In this document: in pieces, positions 3,502-13,872 of the stretch
Position numbering within the stretch: the first letter of the stretch is position 1
How the letters are laid out: the number at the start of each line of letters is the position of its first letter
Source of the DNA: Thermoleophilaceae bacterium
GTDB lineage: Bacteria; Actinomycetota; Thermoleophilia; Solirubrobacterales; Thermoleophilaceae
DNA: 33,773 bases
Direction: 5' to 3'
Assembly: GCA_036378175.1 (NCBI GenBank)
Contig: DASUWY010000082.1
Location: 1 to 33,773 of the forward strand
Program-made: the position numbers and the translations under genes
Notes under the pieces: model-generated
Databases searched by the model: none
The model's input: only the letters and a program-made list of their open reading frames with translations
What the model was told of the DNA's origin: nothing

Positions 3502-3722
3502 AGCACCTGCAGGAGCCCCCAGGCGGAGACGATCGCCCACACGCCCTCGAGCAGCAGGAAGCCGAACTGGCTGTCGAGCGCGGCGAGCACAGCAAGGATC
3601 GCCGAGCCCACGAGGTTGAGAACCAGATACGTGCGCGACTGCGTGCGCAGCAGCCCGAACTGCGCTCCGGCGAAGCCGGCGAGGACACACAGCGCGCCCG
3701 CTATTTGAATGACTTGGGTCAC
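3471..3722 (-). CDS. Small three-helix membrane protein (CBU_0592-like)
   Basis: An 83-residue hydrophobic protein with three predicted membrane helices (about residues 4-25, 31-49 and 52-73) and a short basic tail. The pattern of ALCVLAGFAGAQFGLL, then YLVLNLVGSAILAVLA, then FLLLEGVWAIVSAWGLL resembles the CBU_0592-like membrane domain; function unknown. It starts at GTG (3722-3720), which overlaps the TGA of the HAD-like gene as GTGA, so the two are translationally coupled. Its 3' end runs 31 nt into the converging ceramidase-like gene. Confidence 0.75.
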   Translation of the reverse strand: MTQVIQIAGALCVLAGFAGAQFGLLRTQSRTYLVLNLVGSAILAVLAALDSQFGFLLLEGVWAIVSAWGLLQVLYRPDAARSG

Positions 3723-4222
3723 TGGCGCTCCAATGATTCAGCCCACATGATCAGCTCCTCCGCGAGCTCGTCGGTCAGCCCGCTGTGCGACTCGGTGCGC
3801 ACCAGAAGGGTCGGCTCGTCGCGTTCCGCGGCCCAGCGCTCGCACTGCTCGTCGAGGAAGTCGTCCACCCACGCGGCCGGCCGCCCCCGCGCGTAAGTGT
3901 CGATCGCCGCGAGCTTCCAATGGGCGGAGCCGAAGACCGCGTCGGCGCCAAAGGTGATCACCGGCAGCTCGGGCACGTCGAGCCGCAGCAGATGGGGGAG
4001 GTACTCGTTGGCCTTCTCCTCCCAGCCGGTGGCCCACACGAGCTCATAGCGCTCGCTCAGGCGTGTCAGACGAGGTCCACAGGCCTCGTTGATGCAGTGC
4101 ATCACGCCATCCACGAAATGAAAGCTGCCCGGAGGGGGATCCGCCGGCGAAAAGCCGAACAGGCTTATGACGCCGTCCACGTCTACGAACAAAACAGGCT
4201 GTTTGCTGCGGGATTGGTTCAT
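3719..4222 (-). CDS. HAD-like hydrolase domain protein
   Basis: A 167-residue protein with the haloacid dehalogenase signature. Motif I is FVDVDGV with D14 (nucleophile) and D16 (acid/base). Motif II is Thr65 in VWATGWEE, K103 in SAHWKLAAI fits motif III, and the acidic pair D120-D121 in AWVDDFLDE fits motif IV. No large cap domain is present. Such proteins are usually phosphatases; relatives are annotated only as HAD domain proteins and the substrate cannot be named. It heads a two-gene minus-strand operon with the small membrane protein. The ATG at 4222-4220 has no clear ribosome binding site, so a leaderless or weak start is possible. Confidence 0.8.
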   Translation of the reverse strand: MNQSRSKQPVLFVDVDGVISLFGFSPADPPPGSFHFVDGVMHCINEACGPRLTRLSERYELVWATGWEEKANEYLPHLLRLDVPELPVITFGADAVFGSAHWKLAAIDTYARGRPAAWVDDFLDEQCERWAAERDEPTLLVRTESHSGLTDELAEELIMWAESLERQ

Positions 4223-5735: not shown

Positions 5736-6206
5736 ATGCCGCGTAGAGCAGCAGCAGGCATTCGCCCCATCGAGCCGGACCCGGTCTACAACTCGCGGCT
5801 CGTCCAGCAGATCATCAACAAGGTGATGGTCTCCGGGAAGAAGTCGCTGTCGGAGCGGATCGTGTACGACGCGCTCGACATCCTCTCGAGGCGCTCCAAC
5901 AAGGAGCCTGTGGAGTCGCTCGAGCAGTCGATCGCCGCGCTCACCCCCAACCTCGAGGTGCGCTCCCGCCGCGTCGGCGGTGCCACCTACCAGGTGCCGG
6001 TTGAAGTCCCCGCCCGCCGCGCCCGCACGCTCGCGGTGCGCTGGCTCGTCGAGTTCTCCCGCGGTCGCCGCGAGAAGACGATGGCGGAGCGTCTCGCCGG
6101 CGAGCTCCTCGACGCTCAGTCGGAGCAGGGCGGCGCCTACAAGCGCAAGGAAGACATCTACCGGATGGCGCAGGCCAACAAGGCCTTCGCCCACTACCGC
6201 TGGTAG
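5736..6206 (+). CDS. rpsG: 30S ribosomal protein S7
   Basis: S7 nucleates assembly of the 30S head and contacts the E-site tRNA. The product is 156 residues, the normal bacterial length. It shows the canonical opening [20 protein letters not shown] and the conserved [26 protein letters not shown]. It ends in the usual [13 protein letters not shown]. Start ATG lies 6 nt after the rpsL stop, so the two are one transcript. In E. coli S7 represses the str operon; no such site can be recognised here. Unlike the usual order, fusA does not follow directly: two unrelated genes come between. Confidence 0.98.
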
Positions 6207-6210
6207 CCCC

Positions 6211-6239
6211 GACGGCGATAGCCGGCGCATGCCGGCGTC
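6211..6239 (+). terminator. Hairpin after rpsG
   Basis: GCCGGC (6221-6226) and GCCGGC (6231-6236) form a 6-bp stem with GCAT as loop. GAC (6211-6213) can pair with GTC (6237-6239) outside a bulge. It starts 5 nt after the rpsG stop and lacks a T-tract. Probably ends the rpsL-rpsG transcript, consistent with a separate promoter at 6384. Confidence 0.45.
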
Positions 6240-6262
6240 CTCGGTCGGCCGCGGGCTAGTCG

Positions 6263-6334
6263 CCCAGCCGCCTCCCTGCGTCCTTGGCCTGCCTGGCTCT
6301 CGCCGCCGGGCCCAGCGGCCTCCCTGCGTCCTTG
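6263..6334 (+). repeat. 48-nt-period direct repeat between rpsG and the NTF2-like gene
   Basis: Two copies of a 24-nt sequence beginning CCCAGC (6263-6286 and 6311-6334) agree at 23 of 24 positions and are spaced 48 nt apart; similarity then decays. The rest of the 228-nt gap (6207-6434) holds the rpsG hairpin and the promoter at 6384. I see no coding sequence here. Confidence 0.7.
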
Positions 6335-6383
6335 CGGACCTTGGTTTTCGCACCCAGTTACCAGCGGGGCGTTCAACCCTCGC

Positions 6384-11944: not shown

Positions 11945-12588
11945 TGGCCGCTCCCAAGGCAGCCCTTCTCGGGCAGAAGACCGGCGAGGCGGACCTCGAT
12001 GCCGCCGTGTTCGGCGAGACCTTCCACATGTCGCTCGTGCACGAGGCCGTGCGCGCTGAGCTGAACGCGCGCCGCCGCGGAACATCCTCCACCAAGACGC
12101 GCGGCGAGGTGGCGATGTCGGGTGCCAAGGCCTTCCGCCAGAAGGGCACCGGCCGCGCCCGCGCGGGAGCCCTCTCCACCCCACAGCGCATCGGCGGCGG
12201 CATCGCCTTCGGGCCCAAGCCGCGCGGGTACACGGTGAAGGTCAACCGCAAGGCGCGCCGTCGCGCGCTGCGCGCCGCGCTTTCGCTCCATGCCGAGCGC
12301 GGCACCCTCGCGGTGGTCGACCCCTCGAACTTCGACAGCCCCTCCACGAAGAGCGCCGCCGAGGCGCTTGCTTCGTTCGGCGAGGGGCGGGCGCTCGTGG
12401 TCCTCGCTCGTGAGGGCGAGGAGGCGTGCGCGAAGTCGTTCCGCAACATCGGCGGCGTGACCGTGCTGCCCGCGGACGACGTGGGCGTGGCGGACATCAT
12501 CGGCGCCGCGCGGCTCGTGCTCTCGCAGGCGGCGGTCGACCATCTCACCGCGGTCGCGGCCCCGCCCGCCAAGGAGGCCACGTCGTGA
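11944..12588 (+). CDS. rplD: 50S ribosomal protein L4
   Basis: L4 binds 23S rRNA and lines the exit tunnel; in E. coli it also represses the S10 operon. The 214-residue product has the extended loop with STKTRGEVAMSGAKAFRQKGTGRARAGALSTPQRIGGGIAFGPKPR (about residues 48-93) and the C-terminal domain with NIGGVTVLPADDVGVADII. The start overlaps rplC by one base and the end overlaps rplW by four (GTGA). Whether it regulates its operon here cannot be read directly, but the hairpins ahead of rpsJ are candidate targets. Confidence 0.97.
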   Translation: MAAPKAALLGQKTGEADLDAAVFGETFHMSLVHEAVRAELNARRRGTSSTKTRGEVAMSGAKAFRQKGTGRARAGALSTPQRIGGGIAFGPKPRGYTVKVNRKARRRALRAALSLHAERGTLAVVDPSNFDSPSTKSAAEALASFGEGRALVVLAREGEEACAKSFRNIGGVTVLPADDVGVADIIGAARLVLSQAAVDHLTAVAAPPAKEATS

Positions 12589-12878
12589 ACCCGCGCTCGG
12601 TGATCATCCGGCCGATCGTCTCGGAGAAGAGCTACGCGCTTCTCACGGCCAACAAGTACACCTTCCGCGTCCATCCGGACGCGCACAAGACGCAGATCCG
12701 CCAGGCGGTGGAGGACATCTTCGGCGTGCGCGTTGAGGACGTTCGGACGATGAGCGTGAAGTCCAAGCCCAAGCGGCGCGGCTACACGTACGGCCGCACC
12801 CGCGAGTGGAAGAAGGCGATCGTGCAGCTCCACCCGGACGACTCCATCGAACTCTTCGAGGGCCAGGAGCTCGGTTAG
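12585..12878 (+). CDS. rplW: 50S ribosomal protein L23
   Basis: L23 sits at the tunnel exit and is the docking site for trigger factor and SRP. The start is GTG 12585, giving 97 residues ([19 protein letters not shown]...), the typical N-terminus; a longer upstream reading frame would run through rplD and is rejected. Conserved parts are [36 protein letters not shown] and the basic loop [13 protein letters not shown]. It overlaps rplD by 4 nt (GTGA). Unusually, the next gene, rplB, starts only after 160 nt that contain a long inverted repeat. Confidence 0.96.
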
Positions 12879-12888
12879 TGGCCGCCTC

Positions 12889-13031
12889 CGCAAATACGCT
12901 CGCGTTCGGCGGCTGCGAACCTTCGCCTGGCCGGCCCCGCGATGCTCGCCAATGCCGGGCATTGGCTGCGCTCACGTGTCCACCCCTCCTCGGTTCTCGC
13001 TCGCCGAGCCGCGACCGTATTTCCGTCGGAG
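12889..13031 (+). promoter_or_regulatory. Structured element in the rplW-rplB gap (candidate cis-acting RNA)
   Basis: Bases 12889-12912 can pair with 13001-13025: 20 of 24 positions are Watson-Crick, one more is a G-T wobble, and one base is bulged. Between the arms are an 8-bp perfect stem with 3-nt loop (12948-12955 with 12959-12966) and a small GCGAA/TTCGC stem (12915-12926). The right arm ends 3 nt before GGAG (13028-13031), the ribosome binding site of rplB. Almost every other junction from rpsJ to secY is shorter than 30 nt or overlapping, so this insertion stands out. It could be a translational regulator of rplB or a small repeat element. Confidence 0.55.
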
Positions 13032-13038
13032 ACCACTA

Positions 13039-13872
<834 letters not shown>

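What the first reader, a model, noticed from the sequence alone, without database searches (positions are those of the whole stretch)
12879..13038. 160-nt rplW-rplB gap with long-range inverted repeat ending at the rplB ribosome binding site
Arms 12889-12912 and 13001-13025 pair over 24 positions with few mismatches, enclosing an 8-bp perfect hairpin and a smaller stem. The arm ends 3 nt before GGAG of rplB. In an operon where junctions are otherwise overlapping or short, a folded insert here suggests a translational switch for L2 (perhaps bound by a ribosomal protein), which I do not know as a described leader. Alternative: a MITE-like repeat.
Basis: partly seen in the sequence, partly recalled or inferred. 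Interest (0 to 1): 0.78.

Follow-up and report, generated by a model that had tools for sequence, protein, structure and literature searches.

The report
Mobile hairpin repeat between two genes
The folded DNA between the genes for ribosomal proteins L23 and L2 is not a private switch for L2 but one copy of a jumping, hairpin-forming repeat that many actinobacteria carry in dozens of copies, nearly always just after the ends of genes, where it probably shapes the ends of messenger RNAs.

Summary
The 160-nt rplW-rplB gap and its inverted repeat are real. The terminal arms are 12875-12904 / 13010-13039 and run from the rplW stop to the rplB start. It is not an L2 leader. 25 of 29 relatives have a gap of at most 23 nt, and a 92%-identical copy lies between livG-like and livF-like genes in a congener.

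It belongs to a dispersed family that I found in no Rfam model and in none of the papers searched: 23 copies in this genome, 46 in a relative, at least one in 51 of 61 genomes. The family shares a core (two conserved internal loops, covarying stems). Copies sit right after stop codons or tRNA ends, mostly in the sense direction (95 sense, 23 antisense; 0 of 142 inside genes).

The window copy is the 'class I' form: the core inside ~30-nt terminal inverted repeats with TA/CTAG targets. An IS630-type insertion sequence in a relative carries the terminal repeats of sister class I copies.

Best reading: an IS630/Tc1-mariner-type MITE carrying a 3'-end/intercistronic RNA hairpin that works like REP/BIME elements, while its right arm supplies the rplB Shine-Dalgarno. 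Mobility, structure and placement are shown; the RNA effect is inferred.

The parts
12585..12878 (+). rplW (ribosomal protein L23); its TAG stop (12876-12878) is formed by the left end of the element
   Evidence: PF00276 E=3.6e-34; gene call
12875..12904 (+). left terminal inverted repeat TTAGTGGCCGCCTCCGCAAATACGCTCGCG
   Evidence: the repeat finder I1; the terminus recurs at both ends of related copies
12906..13007 (+). family core: GGCGGCTGCGAACC ... GGTTCTCGCTCGCC outer core stem enclosing internal loops and a hairpin; divergent subfamily (GGCCCCGCGATGCTCGCC instead of GCGTCCTCGG)
   Evidence: CM R1 match 12903-13013, 48.1 bits, E=1.1e-10; inverted repeat I2
12948..12966 (+). apical hairpin GCCAATGC-CGG-GCATTGGC; reads CGATGC...GCATCG in sister copies (compensatory)
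   Evidence: sequence; alignment A3
13010..13039 (+). right terminal inverted repeat CGCGACCGTATTTCCGTCGGAGACCACTAA, ends at the rplB start codon
13028..13031 (+). GGAG Shine-Dalgarno of rplB, 7 nt before ATG, inside the right arm and mostly paired
13039..13872 (+). rplB (ribosomal protein L2)
   Evidence: PF03947, PF00181
6205..6316 (+). second copy of the family in the window (class II), directly after the rpsG stop codon
   Evidence: CM R1, 74.4 bits, E=2.7e-18; PF00177 for the upstream gene
6317..6352 (+). extra right half-copy (CTCCCTGCGTCCTTGCGGACCTTGGTTTTCGC) behind the second copy; the sequence that follows it (TACCAGCGG) pairs with the end of rpsG (CCGCTGGTA)
   Evidence: sequence

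Best explanation
The window element (12875-13039) is a miniature inverted-repeat transposable element of IS630/Tc1-mariner type that carries a conserved, foldable core. It inserted at the TA of a former GTTAATGG junction, where the rplW stop and rplB start probably overlapped as TAATG (inferred). Both genes stayed intact because the ends of the element supply a TAG stop on the left and a GGAG Shine-Dalgarno seven bases before the rplB ATG on the right. The core belongs to a large actinobacterial repeat family with ~20-60 copies per rich genome, placed in sense orientation at the 3' ends of genes and tRNAs. In RNA it folds into a long hairpin with two conserved internal loops. The most likely work (inferred) is that of REP/BIME elements: a barrier or processing signal at mRNA 3' ends and between cistrons that protects upstream RNA and partly attenuates what follows. 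At rplW-rplB it would change the ratio of upstream S10-operon products to L2 and beyond; it is not an L2-sensing switch. Shown: dispersed copies at non-orthologous sites, terminal inverted repeats, near-identical copies in relatives, covariation, placement and orientation. Inferred: the enzyme for this exact copy, the ancestral junction, and the RNA effect.
For: Non-orthologous 92% copy between livG/livF-like genes in a congener, and further copies in relatives. 23 copies in G000 and 46 in G014; 51 of 61 relatives have at least one. Near-identical 164-nt copies at CTAG targets in G051. A 1.2-kb insertion sequence with a PF13358 (DDE_3, IS630-type) match in G014 has ends TAGTGGTGTGACCGGCAACGTTCGCCGG, 27 of 28 identical to the terminal repeat of core-bearing element L227 and close to L194 and L179. 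25 of 29 relatives lack an insert at rplW-rplB. Covariation: 79% of cells paired against 65% shuffled, 233 double-change cells against 91, 0 of 500; structures slid by 1-3 columns reach at most 49%. Placement: 97 against 12 gene ends within 45 nt on the 5' side, none of 142 inside genes; sense:antisense 52:8 for class II (p=5e-9) and 43:15 for class I (p=3e-4). Copies start at tRNA 3' ends. Elements recur after the same genes in different genomes (nrdJ-like, ThiS/MoaD, SufB/D, rpsG, rpsJ, rpsQ, rplW, sigma-70). Shine-Dalgarno in 15 of 25 class I stop-start junctions against 36% background (p=0.02).
Against: No autonomous element with the window copy's exact ends, and no PF13358 transposase, was found in G000, so the link to IS630 rests on sister copies. 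Target duplication cannot be measured cleanly, because the targets are palindromic and some copies have unequal ends. Class II copies lack long terminal repeats and may be a separate entity. No expression data exist; transcript-end or attenuation effects are untested. The window copy is divergent in its second internal loop (48 bits against up to 107).
Confidence: 0.75

Rival explanations
1. A cis-regulatory leader specific for rplB, bound by L2 or another ribosomal protein.
For: Strong fold at an operon junction; Shine-Dalgarno in the stem; two other genomes of the family also carry a family copy at rplW-rplB (L007, L019).
Against: The same element occurs after unrelated genes and tRNAs, and 25 of 29 relatives have no insert. 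The three rplW-rplB copies differ in type and outer stem (class I against class II), so they are not one inherited leader.
Confidence: 0.03
2. A purely selfish MITE family: copies survive only where harmless (between genes), and covariation reflects palindrome upkeep by transposition, recombination or gene conversion, with no RNA function.
For: Clear mobility; class I copies sit exactly at stop-start junctions, which spare both genes; the REP literature notes that some such repeats may be parasitic DNA (PMC3733652).
Against: Sense bias at gene ends (52:8 in class II), conserved internal loops across a wide range of copies, recurrence after the same genes in different genomes, and copies directly after tRNAs are not expected of neutral insertion.
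Confidence: 0.3
3. The core is a transcription terminator of an unusual kind (long hairpin, no U-tract), captured by MITEs.
For: Class II copies follow stop codons and tRNAs in sense and are enriched before convergent genes (20 of 52 against 24% of gene ends, p=0.03).
Against: No U-tract seen behind the copies inspected; only a minority of genes carry one; many copies, including the window's, lie inside essential ribosomal operons where full termination would be lethal.
Confidence: 0.25
4. A REP/REPIN element moved by a RAYT (Y1 HUH) transposase.
For: Palindromic, after gene ends, breakpoints near CT.
Against: PF01797 is absent from all 14 genomes tested, including G000, while the controls ring; TA/CTAG targets and IS630-type ends fit better.
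Confidence: 0.03

Closest known systems
IS630/Tc1-mariner-derived MITEs
   Same: Short, no gene, terminal inverted repeats, TA within CTAG as target, many copies, ends shared with an IS630-type element in a relative.
   Different: A conserved structured core is shared by class I elements with quite different ends and also occurs without them (class II); class I shows a sense bias at gene ends; no autonomous partner for this copy's exact ends was found in this genome.
REP / BIME and GTAG- or CGTC-tagged REPs (Di Nocera et al. 2013, PMC3733652)
   Same: Palindromic, dispersed, placed right after ORFs and between convergent or co-directional genes; the element end can supply the TAG stop; some REP dimers sit inside longer palindromes.
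   Different: ~110-nt core (160 nt with ends) against 20-40 bp; no GTAG tag; the CGTC motif occurs on both strands of an internal loop, in direct orientation; no RAYT gene; the paper lists no Actinobacteria for either tagged family.
Correia (NEMIS) elements of Neisseria
   Same: From own knowledge: ~100-155 bp, TA target, ends beginning TATAGTGG, folded as RNA hairpins in mRNA.
   Different: Different sequence and host phylum; a conserved double-internal-loop core is not a feature known to me of Correia elements. Not tested here.
Ribosomal-protein operon leaders (S10/L4, L10, L20 and similar)
   Same: Structured RNA in a ribosomal-protein operon.
   Different: Not specific for one operon, not conserved at the junction, no Rfam match.

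Membership tests
IS630/Tc1-mariner MITE | short non-coding element with terminal inverted repeats | tested here: met
   30-nt terminal repeats at 80% complementarity around a 105-nt spacer
IS630/Tc1-mariner MITE | several copies at non-orthologous sites | tested here: met
   92% copy at livG/livF in G001; copies in G014, G030, G032
IS630/Tc1-mariner MITE | TA target duplication, often within CTAG | tested here: inconclusive
   CTAG flanks in G051 copies; TA on both sides of the window copy (GTTA...CTAATG); palindromic ends leave the length ambiguous
IS630/Tc1-mariner MITE | ends shared with an autonomous element that encodes a DDE_3 transposase | tested here: inconclusive
   Met for sister elements L227, L194, L179 with the G014 IS (L343), whose transposase is in broken frames; not found for the window's exact ends
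REP/BIME (RAYT-associated) | 20-40 bp palindrome with terminal GTAG | tested here: not met
   core 111 model positions, no GTAG tag
REP/BIME (RAYT-associated) | Y1 (RAYT) transposase in the genome | tested here: not met
   PF01797 0 of 14 genomes
REP/BIME (RAYT-associated) | located downstream of genes, between convergent or co-directional ORFs | tested here: met
CGTC-tagged REP | 8-9 bp stem beginning with AT pairs, 4-5 nt loop, CCA tail, 20-40 bp | tested here: not met
   structure of A2 against the description in PMC3733652
Ribosomal protein leader | tied to a ribosomal operon and conserved there | tested here: not met
   dispersed after many genes; 25 of 29 junctions empty
Ribosomal protein leader | binding by the encoded protein | not testable with these tools
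   needs experiment
Any Rfam family | score above gathering threshold | tested here: not met
   none in the window; only a sub-threshold chance-level match elsewhere (Termite-flg 30.8 against 40 bits)

The most novel reading that the evidence does not exclude
The core is an undescribed structured RNA of Thermoleophilia and some other Actinomycetota, used as a portable 3'-end module after mRNAs and tRNAs. Its two-fold symmetric internal loop (GCGUCCU facing GCGUCCU) would be recognised by an unknown host factor. IS630-type MITEs captured it repeatedly, so that they can insert at stop-start junctions, even in ribosomal operons, and carry a stop codon, an RNA 3'-end signal and a ribosome-binding site with them.
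Probability: 0.35. Interest if true: 0.75.

Novelty: new variant of a known kind. Interest (0 to 1): 0.55.

Why it matters
It turns an apparent one-off ribosomal switch into a repeat family, apparently undescribed, that spans at least an order of soil and water actinobacteria. The family links mobile DNA with mRNA 3' ends: its copies are mobile-looking yet show covariation, conserved internal loops and a strong sense bias. That makes it testable whether a host factor reads the structure, and whether MITEs domesticate a host RNA signal to survive inside essential operons.

Tried and rejected
1) L2 leader: rejected by empty junctions and dispersed copies. 2) RAYT/REP: Y1 transposase absent. 3) Rfam family: none. 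4) Translational coupling by the terminating ribosome freeing the Shine-Dalgarno: mean unpaired probability 0.10 to 0.25 over 14 class I junctions, but 0.16 to 0.15 for the window, so not claimed. 5) 5-bp (CTNAG), 3-bp (TNA) or zero target duplication: considered; TA within CTAG fits the young G051 copies best but is not proven. 6) Phage or plasmid origin: no match to a core consensus. 7) A pattern search with a 15-base terminus gave mostly chance hits. 9) Literature searches for this family found nothing; the library is open-access only.

Full report
OBSERVATION. The inverted repeat is real: arms 12875-12904 with 13010-13039 (30 nt, 80%), and inside them 12906-12921 with 12992-13007. The arms therefore begin at the rplW stop codon and end at the rplB start codon, and the GGAG of rplB (13028-13031) lies inside the right arm. 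Folding 12874-13041 gives -76.3 kcal/mol, z = -4.1, 0 of 200 shuffles as good.

NOT AN L2 LEADER. In 25 of 29 relatives the rplW-rplB gap is at most 23 nt; for one of these the script read a frame-shifted value and the short gap was read from the sequence. The exceptions have 80, 121 and 128 nt. In the same genus, a 92% identical copy of the whole 160 nt lies between a livG-like and a livF-like gene (gene names from the encoded termini). More distant copies lie elsewhere in G001, G014, G030 and G032. The 160-nt DNA search in the own genome had found only itself, because most copies are too divergent for it.

A REPEAT FAMILY. A search with the core sequence found copies in 34 of 61 relatives. 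I aligned 59 diverse copies and built a covariance model from them. With it, the own genome has 23 matches and G014 has 46, and 51 of 61 relatives have at least one. In a sample of 396 genomes of the phylum, 31 match, mostly of the same order and class but also 11 outside the class (strict filters, so lower bounds). The core consensus was not found in phage or plasmid collections. No Rfam family fits.

STRUCTURE. The core reads GGCTGC[AG]AACC-[TG]TCGC-stem B-GGCGTCCTCGG-variable hairpin-CCCTGCGTCCTTG-stem B'-CTCGGTT[TC]TCGC. On the 59 copies, the structure I named pairs in 79% of cells (65% in shuffles), with 233 double-change cells against 91 (0 of 500 shuffles reach it); the same structure slid by 1-3 columns reaches at most 49%. 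The large internal loop shows the same GCGTCCU letters on both strands, so the loop is nearly two-fold symmetric. The window copy belongs to a divergent subfamily that keeps the outer core (GGCGGCTGCGAACC / GGTTCTCGCTCGCC) but has another second loop; its apical hairpin CCAATGC/GCATTGG reads CGATGC/GCATCG in sister copies.

TWO FORMS. Class I copies, including the window's, have terminal inverted repeats of about 30-40 nt around the core; class II copies have only a short outer stem that includes the stop codon of the upstream gene. Class I looks like MITEs. G051 holds about 28 copies, near-identical where both ends are in hand, each 164 nt and flanked by CT...AG, so that CTAG is the target. 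In G014 an insertion sequence of about 1.2 kb with an IS630-type DDE_3 match (PF13358) ends in TAGTGGTGTGACCGGCAACGTTCGCCGG; core-bearing class I elements L227, L194 and L179 have the same or nearly the same ends. Its transposase frames are broken. No such enzyme was found in G000 and no long element with the window's exact ends, so the enzyme for this copy is an inference. Y1/RAYT transposases are absent from 14 genomes.

PLACEMENT. I called genes with a codon model trained on these contigs. Of 142 copies none lies inside a gene. On the 5' side of the element, a gene end within 45 nt is in sense in 97 cases and antisense in 12. Sense:antisense is 52:8 for class II (p=5e-9) and 43:15 for class I (p=3e-4); class II is enriched before convergent genes (20 of 52 against 24% of gene ends, p=0.03). 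Some copies begin directly at the 3' end of a tRNA (Val, Ile, Leu, with L103 and L163). Copies recur after the same genes in different genomes: nrdJ-like, ThiS/MoaD, SufB/D, rpsG, rpsJ, rpsQ, rplW, sigma-70. Ribosomal operons are frequent hosts: the window itself has a second copy after rpsG (6205-6316); G027 has one between rplC and rplD; one MAG contig (L223) has three, after genes that I recognise from their termini as rplV, rpsQ and rplN. Much of this sampling is not random (contigs chosen because they carry copies), so frequencies are indicative.

HOW IT PROBABLY WORKS. Removing the element from ..GGTT|AGTGG...CCACT|AATGG.. leaves GGTTAATGG, that is a TAATG stop-start overlap, a common form in these operons (inference from the sequence). 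Insertion there keeps both reading frames: the left end gives a TAG stop, the right end a Shine-Dalgarno. In 15 of 25 class I stop-start junctions a Shine-Dalgarno of at least four bases lies in the right end, against 36% in ordinary tight junctions (p=0.02). It is predicted to be mostly paired; a terminating upstream ribosome raises its free fraction from 0.10 to 0.25 on average but not in the window copy. I therefore do not claim a coupling switch. The sense orientation, the position after both mRNA and tRNA ends, the covariation and the conserved loops point to work in RNA at 3' ends, as for REP/BIME elements: protection or processing of upstream RNA and partial attenuation. That last step is inferred.

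COMPARISON. REP repeats share the placement and can even supply TAG stop codons, and some REP dimers sit within longer palindromes (PMC3733652). They are 20-40 bp, tagged by GTAG or CGTC, and were not listed in Actinobacteria. This family fails the REP definition but works like them. By form and target, the window copy is best called an IS630-type MITE carrying an undescribed structured core.

Noticed in passing
window 6205-6352: A second family copy directly after rpsG, followed by a further right half-copy; the sequence behind that half-copy (TACCAGCGG) pairs with the last codons of rpsG (CCGCTGGTA).
   Followed up: partly
L223 (about 481-593, 1014-1125 and 3614-3726, minus strand): One MAG contig carries three class I copies in one S10-type operon, after genes that look like rplV, rpsQ and rplN.
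   Followed up: partly
L103 1485, L163 2416, L290 12629 (minus strand): Family copies start exactly at the 3' end of tRNA-Ile, tRNA-Leu and tRNA-Val genes; in L290 the outer stem pairs with the tRNA 3' end.
   Followed up: partly
L343 855-2041: IS630-type insertion sequence in G014 with broken transposase frames whose ends match those of core-bearing MITEs.
   Followed up: yes
L094 1484-1620: A 15-base perfect outer stem that includes the last codons of a SufB/D-like gene: the downstream arm mirrors coding sequence. How such arms arise is unclear.
   Followed up: no
L003 rplW-rplB gap: An 80-nt folded insert in the same gap in G015 that does not match the model; possibly another repeat or a worn-down copy.
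   Followed up: no
L324, L325, L326, L327 and other G051 contig ends: Several assembly breaks in G051 fall inside the 164-nt element, so copy numbers from draft genomes are lower bounds.
   Followed up: no
L037, L048, L329, L331 (G058): A sister MITE type with the window's terminus (TAGTGGCCGCC[CT]CCGCAA) but a different core (GGTCATGTGCCAGAGGCACACTCCCGGATC).
   Followed up: partly
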